DNA of 64,000 bases from Fabrea salina (lineage: Eukaryota; Ciliophora; Heterotrichea; Heterotrichida; Fabreidae). A program made the position numbers and the translations under genes. Below the pieces are notes generated by a model. The model was not told the DNA's origin and searched no databases. It saw only the letters and a program-made list of their open reading frames with translations. Shown piece after piece: positions 1,275 to 21,062 of this stretch. How positions within the stretch are numbered: the stretch's first letter is position 1; every line of letters starts with the position of its first letter. The stretch lies in assembly GCA_022984795.1 (NCBI GenBank), contig JALIHJ010000027.1, positions 62,001-126,000 on the forward strand, in the 5' to 3' direction.

Positions 1275-1904
1275 TTAAGCACTTTTACTAACTAAACCGT
1301 AGCAACCTCTGCAAACTGGCTTGTACTTCTCGCTGCCTCCAATTACTTTCACTTCAGTTTCTTGAGTGGTCCTTACTGTGAAGTAAGCGTCTCCTTTGCA
1401 GTAAGAACACACACTGCTCAACTTAGTTACTCTTTCAGCTTTGCACACTAAACTGCAGATTTCTCCAAAGGGCTGTCTTCTGTAGTCTCCGTCCAAACAA
1501 GCAATTATGACTACTTTGCCCCTTGCAGCCATTTCTTCAGCAAAACTTATAGTGTCTGGAAAGAACTGCCCTTCGTCAATGCCTATTACGTCGTAGTTGC
1601 AAGCTGTTTCTTGCACAGTCAACAACTCTTGGCAAGCAACTGCGTCTAAGAAGTTGTACTGGTCGTGAGTAACTACTTTGTCATCTCCTTCTTCGTAGCG
1701 GGGTTCTCCTGTTTTGATTATTATGCAGGAGTCGTTTCTTATTCGGTACCTCCTTATTCTCCTGAGTAGTTCAGTGGTTTTTCCTGAAAACATAGGGCCG
1801 TATATGACTTGGATTTCTCCTTTGTTGGGTTTGGTGCTTTCGGAATTATTGCGTTCAAGTTTCTCCGGAGTGTCAAAGTAAAGGGGCTTGGCGGTATTTG
1901 CCAT
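1275..1904 (-). CDS. TK1: Thymidine kinase, TK1 type
   Basis: 209 residues, normal length for a cytosolic type II thymidine kinase, which phosphorylates thymidine to dTMP in the salvage pathway. The P-loop GPMFSGKTT is at residues 36-44. DEGQFF at 110-115 contains the catalytic Glu. ACLDGDYRRQPFG forms the Mg/lasso-proximal segment. Four zinc-binding cysteines lie at about 166, 169, 198 and 201 (CSYC and CRGC), flanking the thymidine-binding lasso. A short N-terminal extension of about 28 residues precedes the core. It lies 24 bp upstream of the cyclophilin start and 21 bp from the end of the mevalonate kinase gene, all on the same strand. Confidence 0.95.
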   Translation of the reverse strand: MANTAKPLYFDTPEKLERNNSESTKPNKGEIQVIYGPMFSGKTTELLRRIRRYRIRNDSCIIIKTGEPRYEEGDDKVVTHDQYNFLDAVACQELLTVQETACNYDVIGIDEGQFFPDTISFAEEMAARGKVVIIACLDGDYRRQPFGEICSLVCKAERVTKLSSVCSYCKGDAYFTVRTTQETEVKVIGGSEKYKPVCRGCYGLVSKSA

Positions 1905-13444: not shown

Positions 13445-14182
13445 TTAGAGGTTATTGAGTCTTGCTCTGGCCTGATTGAGCTTTTGCTGCATGTTAGAAA
13501 CAGCTAAGTTGTACTGCTGGTTTGCTTGGTTTAGTTGTTGAGTTTGGCTTAGGATCTCGTTCTTTGCGGCTTTGTTAGCGTCTTCGATTTCTTGTTCGTA
13601 CTGCCGAGCCAAAGACTCTGCTTGCTCCTTGAACTCCTTGGTTTTTTGGGAGTATTGGTTTTGCTTCTCGTTGATCTCTTTTAGAAGTTTCTGTTCTTCA
13701 TCTCTTTGCTGGGCAATAATTGTTTCTCTTTCATTTCTGAGTTTAACTTGCATTTCTTGTTCTTGGTTTCTATAGTTTTGTTCGATTTCTTGTTTTTTCT
13801 TTTCTAGCTTTTTTTGTTCTTCAGCTTTGATTTTTTCTAGTTGTTCGTATAAACTCCTGAGTTGGTTTCTATGCTCAATTTGCATTTCTGCTTCTTTTTT
13901 AGTTGTTTCTAACTTGAGTTCAGCTATCATGTTGTTTTTCTCTTCTTCAAGCTTTAAAATGTCTTTGTGGGTAAATTCCAGGTTTAGTTCTCCTGTGCAA
14001 AGTTGAACTTGTTGAGTCTGGGGATCAATAGTGATCTTCATAGGGGTTGAAACAGTTGACAGCTGCATGTGCTCTGGTATGTCTTGGAGTAACTCGCTTT
14101 CAGCTTCTATAAGTTCGCCTATGTTGTCTTTGATTTGGGCTAGTTGGTTTTTTTGATTGTCTGACAATGACTGCATTTCCAT
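13445..14182 (-). CDS. Long coiled-coil protein
   Basis: 245 residues from the ATG at 14182. A further in-frame ATG 17 codons upstream gives an unlikely hydrophobic start. After a small N-terminal domain (residues 1-85, with MKITIDPQTQQVQL) nearly all the rest is a charged heptad coiled coil rich in Glu, Lys and Gln, ending in an NQARARLNNL tail. No family is recognised; a structural or cytoskeletal role is a guess. It lies 12 bp from the Ku80 start on the same strand, and the tRNA-like RNA genes lie 130 bp further upstream. Confidence 0.7.
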   Translation of the reverse strand: MEMQSLSDNQKNQLAQIKDNIGELIEAESELLQDIPEHMQLSTVSTPMKITIDPQTQQVQLCTGELNLEFTHKDILKLEEEKNNMIAELKLETTKKEAEMQIEHRNQLRSLYEQLEKIKAEEQKKLEKKKQEIEQNYRNQEQEMQVKLRNERETIIAQQRDEEQKLLKEINEKQNQYSQKTKEFKEQAESLARQYEQEIEDANKAAKNEILSQTQQLNQANQQYNLAVSNMQQKLNQARARLNNL

Positions 14183-14314
14183 ATTATCTATAAATATAAG
14201 CGTGAACAGCTTAGGGCGGTGGGTGAGAAGCAATCAACTAGACTTGGTCAAATTGTGTTAAAGGCGACTTAGTTTCTAGTAACTTAATAGTTAAATCAAC
14301 CAAAAATAAAAGGG

Positions 14315-14385
14315 TCCAGAGCCGGGAATCGAACCCAGTGAATTTCATGCGGAGAGGTTCATAAATTGCTACCAAGCTCTCTGGA
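14315..14385 (-). ncRNA. tRNA-like RNA gene, copy 1
   Basis: 71 nt on the minus strand. The acceptor stem TCCAGAG pairs perfectly with CTCTGGA. The T-arm CTGGG-TTCGATT-CCCGG contains an exact Pol III B box (GGTTCGATTCC). The D-arm is shrunken to GCT-TGGT-AGC. The middle hairpin is TTTATG...CATGAA with a 10-nt loop (AACCTCTCCG), so no normal 7-nt anticodon loop can be drawn. The base after the acceptor is C, and runs of T (TTTT, TTTTT) follow within 12 nt, as in a Pol III terminator. Copy 2 supports every stem by covariation. It could be a diverged tRNA or another tRNA-like RNA; the anticodon is not assignable. Confidence 0.7.
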
Positions 14386-14454
14386 GTGTAATCGTTAGTT
14401 AATTTCTGTGTCCTCTGCTTTAATACCAATTAAAGTGCTTTTAAAACCAAAAGG

Positions 14455-14527
14455 TCTGGAGTCAGGAATCGAACCCGATAACTCTTTATGAGGAGAGATT
14501 CATAAACTGCTACCAAGCATCTCCAGA
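14455..14527 (-). ncRNA. tRNA-like RNA gene, copy 2
   Basis: 73 nt on the minus strand. The acceptor TCTGGAG/CTCCAGA and T-arm TCGGG-TTCGATT-CCTGA carry the same exact B box. The D-arm GCT-TGGT-AGC is identical to copy 1. The middle hairpin TTTATGA/TCATAAA has loop ATCTCTCC. Relative to copy 1 the acceptor has two full compensatory pair changes (C-G to T-A, A-T to G-C) and the T-stem at least one, so the fold is under selection. TTTT follows 2 nt after the acceptor. Only 69 bp separate the two genes. It is the nearest feature to the Ca2+ ATPase start, 193 bp away, with no gene between. Confidence 0.7.
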
Positions 14528-14720: not shown

Positions 14721-17700
14721 ATGAACGAAGGCGAAAAAGAATCAAACCAACCCTCGTCCAATCGGTTCAGAGTGTCAAACAGCGAACTCATAGAAGTAAT
14801 TGACGCCTACCGGAACCGAATTCTGGACCAAGAAATCACTAAGGTGGAAGGCATGGGAGGAATTCAAAACTTCCAAGAACTGTTACATGTCGACTTCGAC
14901 TCAGGCCTCAACGGCCAAGATTTCAACGTAAGAATTGAAGCTTTTGGCCACAACAAGCGCAAAGAAGCCAAGCGCAAGACATTCTGCGACTTGTTGGTGG
15001 AAGCCATGAAAGACAAAATTCTAATCATTCTTTCAATCCTAGGAGTGATTTCTCTGTTCATCGGAATCTTCAACACCGACCACCCTGAGTACGAGTGGCT
15101 TGATGGCTTTGCAATCATCATTGCTGTAGTAGTTGTAGTAATGGTTACCGCCATCAATGACTACCAAAAGGAAAAAAAGTTCGACGAACTCCAGAAAACA
15201 GCAGCTAACAGACAAAACACCAACGTATTCAGGTCTGGAAAGCTTCTCTCTATGCACCCCAGCGAGCTACTTGTAGGAGATATCATTGAGATTTCAGACG
15301 GAAACATTATCCCTGCTGACGGAATCCTAATTGATGCAGACAACGTAGAAGTTGACGAAAGCGCTATGACTGGAGAAAACGACAAACTGAGGAAAGTAGG
15401 CTTCGAAGAAGCAATTAAGTTAAAGCAAGACTGGCACAGGAATAACCCTAACTCAAATGAAAACAACCCCCAACTACACCATGAAATTCCTTCACCAGTG
15501 TGCATTTCAGGAACTACTCTTGCTGAAGGCAGAGGCAAAATGCTTATTCTTGCAATTGGAGAAAACTCAGCTGAAGGAAGAATCATGGACCTTTCTGAGC
15601 AAGACCAAGGCAAAACCCCACTCGAAAAGAAACTTGACCACGTTGCTGACTTCATTTCAAAGGTAGGTTTGATTTGTGCAGCAGTTGGAGTGGTTATTTT
15701 GTTCGTAAGACTCTTCATTGAGCTTGGAATTGGAACTATAGACTGGGACACTCAAGATCGAACTGGAGACATGCTGGACTTCGTTATAATTGGGATCACG
15801 ATTTTGGTTGTGGCTATTCCTGAAGGTCTGCCACTTGCAGTGACTCTGTCTTTGGCCTACTCAGTCAAAAAAATGCAGAAAGAAAACAACTTAGTTAAAA
15901 GACTCCACGCGTGCGAAACTATGGGAGGAGCTGACATGATTTGCTCTGACAAAACAGGCACCTTAACTACTAACCAAATGACAGTGGCTAACTTTTGGAT
16001 GGACAAAGACCTCTTGAACATTGACAAGGAGCAACCGTTTTCCCAGTACCCTGAATTTTTCGCTAAACTCAAAGAAGGGATTTGTGTAAACTCCAATGCT
16101 AGAATCCAAGACGGCAAAGAAGTAGGTTCCAAAACTGAAATTGCAATGCTGAACATGCTGATTTCTTTCGGACACGACGACTACTTAGAAGTAAGGGAGA
16201 GGTCCAAGAAAAGACCCCACAAAGGATTTCCTTTCAGTTCTTCTAGGAAAAGAGCAAGTATCATCATTTCTCTAGACGACGAAGGCACAAGAGCCAGGGC
16301 TTACGTAATAGGTGCTTCAGAGATAGTGCTGGAGTACTGCAAGGAGTACCTTGACCGAAACGGCAGTGCCAGAGACATTTCCCCAGAAATCAGGGAAAAC
16401 TTGTCCTCTTCAATTGAAAAAATGGCAGGAAACGGACTTAGAACTCTCTGCCTTGCCTACAAAGAACTTCCTCCAAACTACCCTTGGGATGCTGTTGACG
16501 AAGAACACAACCCCAAAATTGAAACTGAAAGTCTAGTTTGCATTGGGATTGTTGGAATCAAGGACCCTGTGAGGCCTGGAGTCACTACTTCTGTAGAAAA
16601 CTGCAAACGGGCCGGAATTAAAGTCCGCATGGTAACTGGTGACAACAAAAACACCGCTATTTCAATAGCCAGAGAATGCGGAATAGCTGTGGGCGCCACA
16701 GGGGAAGTTTTGGAAGGAAAAGAGTTCAGAAACATTGCTGGAGGAATCATTTGTGACAACTGCAAAACACACGAGTGCGGTTGTGCAAGAGAAGCAGGCA
16801 AAGCTGAGCCTGGACAGAAGATCAGAAAGGACGTAGTCAAGAACATGGAAGCTTTCAGAGAAATGATAGGGAACTTGTCTGTTCTAGCTAGGTCCCAACC
16901 CGAAGACAAGTACTTGTTGGTGACTGGACTCATGCAAATGGGACACGTGGTAGCTGTTACTGGGGACGGAACCAACGATGCACCTGCTTTGAAAAAGGCG
17001 GACATTGGGTTTGCTATGGGAATAGCTGGAACTGAGTTAGCACGTGAAGCTGCTGACATCATTCTGATGGACGACAACTTTTCTTCAATCATGGTGGCAG
17101 TGATGTGGGGAAGGAACATTTACGACAACATTCAAAGGTTCATTACCTTCCAGTTAACTGTGAACTTAGTTGCTGTAAGTGCAGCTATTGTAGGGGGTGT
17201 AACTGTGAAGCAGTCTCCTTTGAACCCTGTGCAGATGCTTTGGGTGAACTTGATCATGGACACATTTGCTTCTTTGGCGCTGGCAACTGAACCCCCTACT
17301 GAAGAAATGCTTAGAAGACCTCCCCACAGCAGAGACGAGTCCATAGTGACTCCTATAATGTGGAAGCATATACTAGGTCAGGCAGTACTGCAGTGCATAG
17401 TAGTTTTCACAATGTTGTTTGCAGGGGAGTGGTTTTTGATTGAAAACGGAGACACTGACGACGAAAGAGTGCTTACTAATCCCGAAAACAGCGACATGGT
17501 GATCTCAGGAAGGAACTACGACTTTGACGGCTCAGAGGACTACAAAGAGTTCTACGACGACCCTGATGTTGGTCCTAGCCGGCACTTCACTTACATATTT
17601 AACGTGTTTGTGTTGTTCCAATTGTTCAACGAAGCCAATGCACGCAAGATCAAAGACGAGATTTGGATTCTGGAAGGAGTTACTAGGAACTACATGTTCA

Positions 17701-17987
17701 TTGGGATTTGGTTTTTGATTTTAGGCATGCAGATCATCATGGTGCATTTTGGAAGCTACGCACTAAGCTGTCACTTGAATGGACTGACCTTTATCCAGTG
17801 GTTGATTTGCATAGGCTTTGCCGCTGTGGCTATTCCTTGGAGATTGTTGTTACTGCTGATTCCTAACAAGTGCTTCAAAGAATGGGGAAGGCAAGAAAGC
17901 GAGTCTGCTAGAATTGTTGAAATGGCGCGAAGAAAAAGCAGCGGTGGAAGTGCTCAACGCCGCCTAACACCTAAACCTCATCATTAA
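14721..17987 (+). CDS. Plasma-membrane type Ca2+-transporting P-ATPase (P2B, PMCA)
   Basis: 1088 residues. It pumps Ca2+ out of the cytosol (or into alveolar stores) at the cost of ATP. [20 protein letters not shown] is the helix-4 Ca-binding region. The phosphorylation site [13 protein letters not shown] has Asp at about residue 410. The hinge [20 protein letters not shown] is complete, and about ten membrane helices are visible. The actuator loop reads TGEN (217-220) in place of the usual TGES. An extra Cys-rich insertion ([11 protein letters not shown]) sits in the P/N domain. The C-terminal tail is short and basic ([13 protein letters not shown]), shorter than the animal calmodulin-binding tail, so regulation by calmodulin is uncertain. 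Only the tRNA-like genes and a 193 bp leader lie upstream. Confidence 0.96.
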   Translation: [1088 protein letters not shown]

Positions 17988-19655: not shown

Positions 19656-21062
19656 TTAAGTCCTCTGGGTTTTGGTCTTCCTAGTTGTAATGTTCCTAGA
19701 GGAACACTTGCTTGACTTGCAGCTCTGAGGAGCTATTTTGAAGTTAAAATCAGAAATCTTGTCTAATTTCTGAACTGACTTTTGGCTCCTAAGTCGGTTT
19801 GACTCTGACTTAAGGAACTCGTCTAGGAAAACAAAGTACCTCGAGTCGGGAGAAAGCCTTTTAGGAATCCCTGGGTGCCAACTGCCTAAGTTCCTTTGCT
19901 TTTCAGCGTTTTTCATAGCTTCGTAAATAGCTTTATCGTAGTTATTCTTTGGAATAGACTTAGTTAAACTCCTTCTAGAAAGTGGACTGAACTTAGGCAC
20001 TTGGGAGTGAGCTTTTTTGTGGTTGGCTTGTTTTGAGAGTTCAGAAGTGAATTGTTTGTGGAGTTTCTGAAGTTCTTGGTCGTTTTCTGAGTGCTTGTTT
20101 TCAAGCACTTTGATTATTTTCTCTAGGTCTGACCTGCTGCGACTGTTAATTTTTGAACTTGGGTTTAACTTGTGTTTGATTTCTTCAGCTCTTTTTTCTT
20201 TTTTAAAGGTTTTTTTGAGTATTTCAATGAAGTTACTGTAGCCTTCAGCATTAGGGGGTTTTTTACACGAGGTGCTGGATTGCTCTTTGGACTCTTTGGA
20301 CTCAAATGTTTCAGTTTCTAGAGTTTTAAGGTGTAGGTGAGTGTCCCTGTTCGAGGACTCGTTTATTTGCTTTACTTGTTGCAAGTCGTCGAACTTCATC
20401 ATAGCTCCGTAAGACTTTGGACTTTGAGCTTTTCTTCGAATTAAGTCAATTGTGTTTACGTACAAAAGGTGCATTTTGAATTGACTGTCAATAACTAAAT
20501 CAAATTCGAGTCTGAGTATTTTCATTCCACTGAACTGGTGGACAGCCTTTGCAAGGACTCCGCAAAACTCAAAGGAGTCCTCTCTGATTCTTTGGTTTTG
20601 GACTTGTTCTGAGTTCTCGTTTCCAATGTACTTACTGAAGATGTCGCAAGTGACTTGTCCGTTTTCAAGGTAACAACACACTTTAAATACCTTGGAGGGC
20701 TCGTGTATAGTGCTGAGGCACTTTATTACGTATCTAAGGTCTTGATTTAGGTTTTTGGTAGATACTATTTCTTCCACTTCAGATTTAAAAGCAACTTGGG
20801 TGTCTTTACTGAAGTACAAGTAAGCCACAGGCCTTGTATAGTCGTTCCGGTGAACTCCCAAAAGTCTAGTTTCGCTGAACTTTGCTATCAACTCAGGCGT
20901 GCTTTTAACTTCTTTCTTAGTTCGAGTTACATAGCCACTTGAGTTAGTGCAGTACACAGAGCTCACTTTGTTGCCTCTGCAAACTGCTGTTTCTAAGATA
21001 CTTAGTTGAACTGAATTTTTCCCAAGGCTCGAAAGTAACCAATTGTAGTCTCTAACTTCCAT
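19656..21062 (-). CDS. Unrecognised 468-residue protein
   Basis: 468 residues. The N-terminal part (about 1-215) is mixed alpha/beta with regularly spaced hydrophobic strands (VFKVCCYLENGQVTCDIF, LRLEFDLVIDSQFKMHLLYV) and looks folded. The C-terminal half is Lys/Ser-rich with helices (a coiled coil near LEKIIKVLENKH) and a basic, disordered end. The arrangement is compatible with a cytoskeletal or basal-body protein but I cannot name a family. It begins 18 bp from the end of DRC7, same strand. Confidence 0.6.
   Translation of the reverse strand: MEVRDYNWLLSSLGKNSVQLSILETAVCRGNKVSSVYCTNSSGYVTRTKKEVKSTPELIAKFSETRLLGVHRNDYTRPVAYLYFSKDTQVAFKSEVEEIVSTKNLNQDLRYVIKCLSTIHEPSKVFKVCCYLENGQVTCDIFSKYIGNENSEQVQNQRIREDSFEFCGVLAKAVHQFSGMKILRLEFDLVIDSQFKMHLLYVNTIDLIRRKAQSPKSYGAMMKFDDLQQVKQINESSNRDTHLHLKTLETETFESKESKEQSSTSCKKPPNAEGYSNFIEILKKTFKKEKRAEEIKHKLNPSSKINSRSRSDLEKIIKVLENKHSENDQELQKLHKQFTSELSKQANHKKAHSQVPKFSPLSRRSLTKSIPKNNYDKAIYEAMKNAEKQRNLGSWHPGIPKRLSPDSRYFVFLDEFLKSESNRLRSQKSVQKLDKISDFNFKIAPQSCKSSKCSSRNITTRKTKTQRT

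What the first reader, a model, noticed from the sequence alone, without database searches (positions are those of the whole stretch)
14315..14527. Two tandem tRNA-like genes with a shrunken D-arm and no normal anticodon loop
Both have a perfect 7-bp acceptor and 5-bp T-stem, an exact B box, and a downstream T-run, so Pol III transcription is likely. Acceptor pairs 3 and 4 and several T-stem pairs covary between copies. Yet the D-arm is only GCT-TGGT-AGC and the central hairpin has a 6-7 bp stem with a loop around AAYCTCTCC that does not offer a 7-nt anticodon loop with U33. Position 73 would be C. They keep the same unusual features, so it is not decay of one tRNA. They may be tRNA-like regulatory RNAs, unusual tRNAs, or a class of RNA not in catalogues.
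Basis: partly seen in the sequence, partly recalled or inferred. Interest (0 to 1): 0.72.

Follow-up and report, generated by a model that had tools for sequence, protein, structure and literature searches.

The report
Ciliate tRNA-shaped RNA gene pair
Two neighbouring genes in what looks like a ciliate's nuclear genome appear to make small RNAs shaped like the top half of a transfer RNA but without a working anticodon, so they probably do something other than read the genetic code.

Summary
The structure is real. Two minus-strand genes (14314-14385, 14454-14527) each form 21 of 21 stated base pairs: 7-bp acceptor, 3-bp D-arm with 4-nt loop, 6-bp central stem with 10-nt loop, 5-bp T-stem; three pairs differ by double compensatory changes. 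Bodies match (58/74) while flanks do not. ARAGORN and Rfam's cut-offs miss them.

They are probably not a missing decoder: fetched loci hold 76 ordinary tRNA contexts of 45 anticodon types, lacking only Ala-AGC of the usual set. The Pol III argument is weaker than stated: all 76 end in T5 or longer, these in T4, and both score below all 76 for a -30 TATA-like element.

New here: four more genes at two loci share U1:A72, C2:G71 and C73; 0 of 76 ordinary contexts pair U1:A72 with C73. Three of the four also end in T4. They are tRNA-Asp-like and not close in sequence to the pair, so that link is tentative.

Best reading: functional, non-decoding tRNA-like RNAs, closest in layout to mascRNA/menRNA. 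Expression, charging and conservation in other heterotrichs are untested.

The parts
14314..14385 (-). Copy 1: tRNA-like gene, 72 nt including C73. Acceptor 14385-14379 / 14321-14315; D-arm 14377-14368; central stem 14365-14360 / 14349-14344 with 10-nt loop 14359-14350; T-arm 14338-14322; C73 at 14314
   Evidence: 21 of 21 stated pairs form; model hit 96.2 bits, by construction
14454..14527 (-). Copy 2: tRNA-like gene, 74 nt including C73. Acceptor 14527-14521 / 14461-14455; D-arm 14518-14509; central stem 14506-14501 / 14490-14485 with 10-nt loop 14500-14491; T-arm 14478-14462; C73 at 14454
   Evidence: 21 of 21 stated pairs form; model hit 103 bits, by construction
14325..14335 (-). B box (GGTTCGATTCC) of copy 1
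   Evidence: exact match; mean 0.01 per shuffled window
14465..14475 (-). B box (GGTTCGATTCC) of copy 2
   Evidence: exact match
14302..14311 (-). T-run after copy 1 (TTTT-A-TTTTT), starting 3 nt after the acceptor stem
   Evidence: sequence; first run is T4, compared with T5 or longer in 76 of 76 ordinary tRNA contexts
14443..14452 (-). T-run after copy 2 (TTTT-GG-TTTT), starting 2 nt after the acceptor stem
   Evidence: sequence; first run is T4
14419..14426 (-). TATA-like GTATTAAA upstream of copy 1, at -41 to -34, about 7 nt further out than in ordinary tRNA genes here; function inferred only
   Evidence: position matrix made from 76 ordinary contexts, score 5.37

Best explanation
The two genes encode small, non-decoding, tRNA-like RNAs. 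Shown in the sequence: both can form a complete tRNA top half (7-bp acceptor plus 5-bp T-arm with an exact T-loop/B box), a miniature D-arm whose loop still carries GG, and one shared central hairpin in place of an anticodon arm. Acceptor and T pairs are held by compensatory change, the D-arm is identical between copies and the central hairpin nearly so, and the flanks have lost their similarity. Inferred: they are transcribed by Pol III from the internal B box, trimmed at the two ends by RNase P and RNase Z, given CCA, and act as tRNA mimics. The top half would be read by tRNA-binding proteins (processing enzymes, a synthetase or an elongation factor), and the conserved central hairpin (loop AAYCUCUCCN) would supply a second, sequence-specific contact. 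U1:A72, C2:G71 and C73, shared with four more genes at two loci, may mark one common partner.
For: 21 of 21 stated pairs in both copies with 3 double changes; P about 0.005 for keeping all 12 acceptor/T pairs by chance. Body alignment z 12.4, flanks z -0.3 to 1.6. D-arm identical and central hairpin nearly so. Only these two places in the genome match GCTTGGTAGC followed at 20-45 nt by GGTTCRANYCC. Ordinary tRNAs of 45 anticodon types are present. With the four other genes, 72 of 72 acceptor/T cells pair and 6 of 12 pairs have double changes; 0 of 500 shuffles reach the pairing percentage or the covariation score and 5 of 500 reach that number of pairs. A relaxed T-loop followed by G71-A72-C73 and, within 0-2 nt, TTTT occurs at exactly six genes genome-wide (8 rows; reversed-pattern control 4 rows), and 0 of 76 ordinary contexts have U1:A72 with C73.
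Against: No transcript data. Box A shortened, T4 instead of T5 or longer, and no good -30 TATA-like element, so expression may be weak or absent. The central stem rests on one one-sided change and is absent from copy 1's free fold; copy 2's free fold is not the cloverleaf, and the free folds of the other four are only partly cloverleaf (z -0.59 to -1.86). The two-sequence shuffle control is weak (60 of 500); in the six-gene set the number of pair types is ordinary (262 of 500). The link to the C59/C46 genes rests on end features: the pair scores 15-24 against them and 29 against the best ordinary tRNA. No eukaryotic relatives could be searched.
Confidence: 0.5

Rival explanations
1. Relics: old tRNA-derived duplicates that are no longer expressed and are drifting. 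The odd D and central arms would be the first damage, and the acceptor/T-arm would look intact by chance or through recent descent.
For: T4 terminators, shortened box A and no good -30 TATA-like element. Four further odd tRNA-like genes exist, as a decaying family might leave. ARAGORN and Rfam miss the pair. Free folds are only partly cloverleaf.
Against: All 21 stated pairs are kept in both copies, with 3 double changes, and P about 0.005 for 12 pairs. The copies share the same odd D-arm and central hairpin while flanks have lost similarity. Across six genes 72 of 72 acceptor/T cells pair.
Confidence: 0.22
2. Unusual but translating tRNAs: alloacceptors or frameshift-type tRNAs with an enlarged anticodon loop, charged through the acceptor end.
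For: Acceptor end and T-arm are intact. ARAGORN reads anticodons CCG and UCU in two of the C59 genes, a 4-nt one in the third, and UAC at C46. Precedents: nev-tRNAs charged with leucine against their anticodon (abstract of PMC4300185 in listing; passages of PMC4033280), and yeast mitochondrial tRNAThr1 with an 8-nt loop (abstract of PMC4267643 in listing).
Against: The window pair's central loop is 10 nt, with no 5+7 arm in register with U33. The fetched ordinary set lacks only Ala-AGC of the usual types, and neither copy offers an AGC anticodon in its loop. Passages of PMC13092985 and PMC10553269 say Fabrea uses the canonical code.
Confidence: 0.12
3. Vault RNAs of this ciliate: small Pol III RNAs with a B box, tandem genes and a T4 terminator, held in vault particles.
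For: The genome has two open frames of 847 and 854 aa that match the MVP shoulder domain at 173.6 and 160.6 bits, so vaults are plausible. Human vault RNA genes carry box A and box B and three lie at one locus (passages of PMC7904556). Another protist with MVP, Trypanosoma brucei, has a vault RNA (passages of PMC12547018).
Against: No Rfam Vault match in or near either gene at E up to 10. Box A is shortened. A complete tRNA top half and a 72-74 nt length are not typical of vault RNAs (recalled).
Confidence: 0.08
4. DNA elements rather than RNAs: TFIIIC-bound B-box sites acting as boundaries or promoters between the divergent genes.
For: They sit in the gap between two divergent ORFs; the B box is exact while other Pol III features are weak.
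Against: Compensatory changes in acceptor and T stems outside the B box are not expected of a DNA site.
Confidence: 0.08

Closest known systems
mascRNA / menRNA (Rfam RF01684)
   Same: Same layout in the model's structure line: 7-bp acceptor, D-arm of 3 bp with a 4-nt loop, 5-bp T-arm with 7-nt loop, and a middle that is not a normal anticodon arm (the last point recalled). It is the best-scoring Rfam family for copy 1, at 13.1 bits.
   Different: Score far under the gathering cut-off of 42.5 (E 2.4), with four acceptor positions left unmatched on each side; not listed for copy 2. mascRNA is cut from a long precursor RNA (abstract of PMC9777231 in listing); here there are two separate units, each with its own B box and T-run. 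A long precursor is not excluded: the nearest minus-strand ORFs of 150 aa or more upstream are two antisense to the ATPase (15161-15751, 16478-17119), then 19656-21062.
Nematode V-arm tRNAs (nev-tRNAs)
   Same: Nuclear tRNA-like genes whose acceptor identity and anticodon region do not match the ordinary code (passages of PMC4033280).
   Different: nev-tRNAs have a long variable arm and decode codons; the window pair has a 5-6 nt variable region and no normal anticodon loop.
Ordinary nuclear tRNA (Rfam RF00005)
   Same: Acceptor stem, T-arm, B box, length 72-74 nt.
   Different: D-arm too small, no 5+7 anticodon arm; not called by ARAGORN and not listed for RF00005 up to E 10 (one search left out one lower-scoring same-clan match).
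Vault RNA (Rfam RF00006)
   Same: Small B-box genes in tandem; MVP-like ORFs in the genome.
   Different: No Rfam match, shortened box A, complete tRNA top half.
Yeast mitochondrial tRNAThr1 with an 8-nt anticodon loop
   Same: Enlarged loop on the anticodon arm (abstract of PMC4267643 in listing).
   Different: Mitochondrial and decodes CUN; here nuclear, 10-nt loop, no anticodon frame.

Membership tests
Ordinary nuclear tRNA | 7-bp acceptor and 5-bp T-arm with T-loop | tested here: met
   12 of 12 pairs in both copies
Ordinary nuclear tRNA | 5-bp anticodon stem with 7-nt loop and U33 | tested here: not met
   6-bp stem with 10-nt loop AAYCUCUCCN
Ordinary nuclear tRNA | Recognised by ARAGORN / RF00005 | tested here: not met
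   ARAGORN 0 genes, bacterial setting; RF00005 not at gathering and not listed up to E 10 (one lower-scoring same-clan match left out)
mascRNA-menRNA (RF01684) | Cloverleaf with 3-bp/4-nt D-arm and non-anticodon central arm | tested here: met
   D-arm GCT-TGGT-AGC and a non-canonical central hairpin, compared with the structure line printed
mascRNA-menRNA (RF01684) | Rfam model score over 42.5 bits | tested here: not met
   13.1 bits for copy 1; copy 2 not listed
mascRNA-menRNA (RF01684) | Cut from a long non-coding precursor RNA | not testable with these tools
   No transcript data; each copy has its own B box and T-run
Vault RNA (RF00006) | Rfam model match | tested here: not met
   none up to E 10
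Vault RNA (RF00006) | Intact box A and box B | tested here: not met
   B box exact; box A region shortened to GCTTGGTAGC, judged by eye against the recalled consensus
Vault RNA (RF00006) | Association with MVP particles | not testable with these tools
   two MVP-like ORFs in the genome; no binding data
tRNA-Sec (RF01852) | Model score over 47 bits | tested here: not met
   copy 2 19.9 bits with many non-pairs; a good tRNA-Sec, 74.7 bits, is elsewhere
nev-tRNA | Long variable arm | tested here: not met
   5-6 nt variable region
Pol III type 2 gene | B box, box A, upstream element and terminator like the genome's own tRNA genes | tested here: inconclusive
   B box met; T4 compared with T5 or longer in 76 of 76; -30 TATA-like score below all 76

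The most novel reading that the evidence does not exclude
A lineage-specific class of Pol III tRNA-like RNAs in a heterotrich ciliate, six genes at three loci. The acceptor end (U1:A72, C2:G71, C73) is kept as the mark for one partner while the decoding half is replaced: by a conserved hairpin in the window pair and by varied loops at C59. It would be an independently evolved, gene-encoded counterpart of mascRNA, possibly aminoacylated through the acceptor end but never used for decoding.
Probability: 0.2. Interest if true: 0.8.

Novelty: new variant of a known kind. Interest (0 to 1): 0.55.

Why it matters
Free-standing tRNA-like RNA genes that have replaced the decoding half would show that the tRNA top half can be reused as a stable RNA handle in a single-celled eukaryote. 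If the six genes share one partner, they offer a natural test of acceptor-end identity (the 'operational code') freed from the anticodon. If they prove silent, they still show how such genes slip past ARAGORN and Rfam, and how a scan for T-loop motif plus T-run recovers them.

Tried and rejected
Missing isoacceptor: judged unlikely. Pro was absent from the first 63 scored tRNAs, but four Pro genes were found by pattern; tRNA-Sec is at C70; Leu, His, Ser-CGA and others followed. Only Ala-AGC of the usual set (as I recall it) was not seen; a DNA search with Ala-UGC found only itself and the Ala-CGC locus, in a mode that can miss close copies, so its absence is not proved.

Mitochondrial origin: the two-copy model R1 over the 42.6-kb contig C103, which carries mitochondrial-looking tRNAs, gave one hit of 21.7 bits (L108), within the range of ordinary tRNAs.

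Relatives elsewhere: a 27-letter pattern (24 fixed bases) in viral contigs had 0 matches. A shorter one in bacterial and archaeal contigs had 1, in a Mariprofundus MAG, with no R1 match there up to E 10. I take these for ordinary tRNAs but did not inspect them one by one.

In the own genome, GCTTGGTAGCNNTTTATGA with up to 3 mismatches gave 99 places (reversed-pattern control 22): the pair with 0, four with 2 and the rest with 3. The places with 2 or 3 mismatches were not examined singly; the stricter T-loop pattern keeps only the pair. A DNA search with copy 2 found only itself, not even copy 1.

Paper searches showed no description of these genes in their listings; the genome paper I recall for Fabrea salina was not among them.

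Full report
Source. The window is G000:C23:62001-126000 of an 18.33-Mb, 103-contig assembly. Long ORFs in the standard code and the size fit the heterotrich ciliate Fabrea salina; that name is recalled and comes from no call. Passages of PMC13092985 and PMC10553269 say Fabrea uses the canonical code.

Observation. Both genes are on the minus strand, between a minus-strand ORF (13445-14233, no Pfam match) and a plus-strand cation-transporting ATPase (14721-17987). Each has a 7-bp acceptor, GCT-TGGT-AGC D-arm, TTTATG/CATRAA stem with 10-nt loop, 5-bp T-stem, TTCGATT loop and C73. All 21 stated pairs form in both; three have changes on both sides and three on one side. Sliding the partners by 1-3 columns drops pairing to 38.5-50%. 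The column-shuffle control is weak with two sequences (60 of 500 shuffles reach the observed values). In an independent null, 8 random changes (75% transitions) among the 24 acceptor/T sites keep all 12 pairs with P about 0.005. The bodies align at 58/74 (z 12.4) while upstream and downstream flanks are near background (z -0.3 to 1.6), so the duplication is old and the bodies are constrained. Against the full model: copy 1's free fold lacks the central stem (z -1.33) and copy 2's is not the cloverleaf.

Not an ordinary tRNA. ARAGORN finds no tRNA in the window and Rfam nothing at gathering scores. With relaxed cut-offs, copy 1's best family is mascRNA-menRNA (13.1 bits, E 2.4) and copy 2's is tRNA-Sec (19.9 bits, E 0.053), both far below cut-off. 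The genome's ordinary tRNAs were collected from an Rfam scan that scored 63 of 1004 candidates, patterns and tRNA-Sec. The fetched loci give 76 distinct nuclear contexts of 45 anticodon types (four mitochondrial-contig loci left out); only Ala-AGC of the usual set, as I recall it, is unseen. The pair is therefore unlikely to be a missing decoder.

Promoter and terminator. Of the 76 contexts, 76 have a first T-run of 5-9 (39 T5, 23 T6, 8 T7, 4 T8, 2 T9). Ordinary contexts have an A/T-rich element near -32 to -27 (64 contexts). Both window copies have T4, and both score below all 76 for that element (the matrix was made from the same 76, which favours them); copy 1 has a good match about 7 nt further out (GTATTAAA at -41) and copy 2 none. 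The other odd genes score at or below the following numbers of the 76: T3 0, C46 1, T2 3, T1 21 (the number is how many ordinary contexts score no higher). T4 in copy 2 leaves open a dicistronic transcript. Pol III transcription is inferred, not shown.

More genes. A genome scan for GGTTCRANYCC plus a T-run gave 78 places (reversed-pattern control 14). Of these, 75 lie in loci I held: the window pair, four further odd genes, four places where ARAGORN finds no tRNA (L233, L235, L236, L237) and 65 at ordinary tRNAs. Three were not fetched (C19:140782, whose 3' end equals tRNA-Tyr; C74:24689; C92:25223). The odd genes are three in tandem at C59 (L244:1187-1258, 1296-1368, 1400-1471, plus strand; T1-T3) and one at C46 (L232:372-302, minus). 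All have U1:A72, C2:G71, C73 and 7-bp acceptors; T1-T3 have T4 and C46 has T6. A narrower pattern (relaxed T-loop, G71-A72-C73, then TTTT within 0-2 nt) returns exactly these four and the window pair (8 rows, 6 genes; reversed-pattern control 4 rows). That pattern selects for G71, A72, C73 and the T-run, but not for pairing. Across the six, 72 of 72 acceptor/T cells pair and 6 of 12 pairs have double changes. Of 500 shuffles, 5 reach that number of pairs, 0 the pairing percentage or covariation score, but 262 the number of pair types. Among ordinary contexts, C73 occurs in 4 of 76 (with G1:C72; the Pro genes), and U1:A72 with C73 in 0 of 76 (ends assigned by script).

How far they are one family. 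The four C59/C46 genes score as tRNA (43.0-55.5 bits), and their nearest ordinary tRNA is tRNA-Asp (scores 42-55); they are closest to each other (60-120). The window pair scores 15-24 against them and 29 against the best ordinary tRNA. R1 gives the four 19.8-29.5 bits, against up to 25.8 for ordinary tRNAs of this genome. So the link to the window pair rests on end features and the short T-run. ARAGORN reads CCG, UCU and a 4-nt anticodon at C59 and UAC at C46. By eye I read the three C59 arms as roughly 4 bp with a 10-nt loop, two of them with an A.C mismatch; free folds support the four only partly (z -0.59 to -1.86).

Mechanism. I favour non-decoding tRNA mimics: top half for tRNA-handling proteins, central hairpin as a second contact (0.5). 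The pairing potential and its conservation are shown; transcription, processing, CCA, charging and partners are inferred. Rivals are relics (0.22), unusual translating tRNAs (0.12), vault RNAs (0.08; two MVP-like ORFs in the genome) and DNA-level TFIIIC sites (0.08).

Comparison. In layout the closest known RNA is mascRNA/menRNA, whose Rfam structure line shows the same 3-bp, 4-nt-loop D-arm. Membership is not met by score, and the biogenesis is untested; each copy has its own B box and T-run, though a long precursor is not excluded. Works like, perhaps; a member, no.

Limits. No eukaryotic relatives could be searched. Only 63 of 1004 tRNA candidates were scored, and T-loop variants outside the patterns would be missed, so the count of six is a lower bound.

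Noticed in passing
G000:C7:161327-161680 (-) and C45:96557-96907 (+): Two open frames (847 and 854 aa) with MVP shoulder domains at 173.6 and 160.6 bits: this ciliate probably makes vault particles, and no vault RNA is known to me for it.
   Followed up: partly
L232:402-701 (+) beside L232:302-372 (-): A D-Tyr-tRNA deacylase gene (PF02580, 116.5 bits) starts 29 bp from, and head-to-head with, the odd C46 tRNA-like gene; possibly chance in a dense genome.
   Followed up: no
L244:1187-1471 (+): Three tandem odd tRNA-like genes lie between two minus-strand DEAD-box helicase ORFs; the first two are 92% alike and differ mainly in the D-loop and at the anticodon positions (CCG and UCU).
   Followed up: partly
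nuclear tRNA contexts in fetched loci: Ordinary tRNA genes here share an A/T-rich element at -32 to -27 and A at -1 in 78% of 64 contexts, and T5-T9 terminators in 76 of 76 contexts.
   Followed up: yes
L092 and L093: tRNA-Tyr genes carry a 10-nt intron.
   Followed up: no
G000:C103 (L104-L108): A 42.6-kb contig with His, Phe, Tyr, Leu and UCA-anticodon tRNAs, probably mitochondrial.
   Followed up: no
own genome: No Ala-AGC tRNA was seen among the fetched loci, although Ala-CGC and Ala-UGC were.
   Followed up: partly
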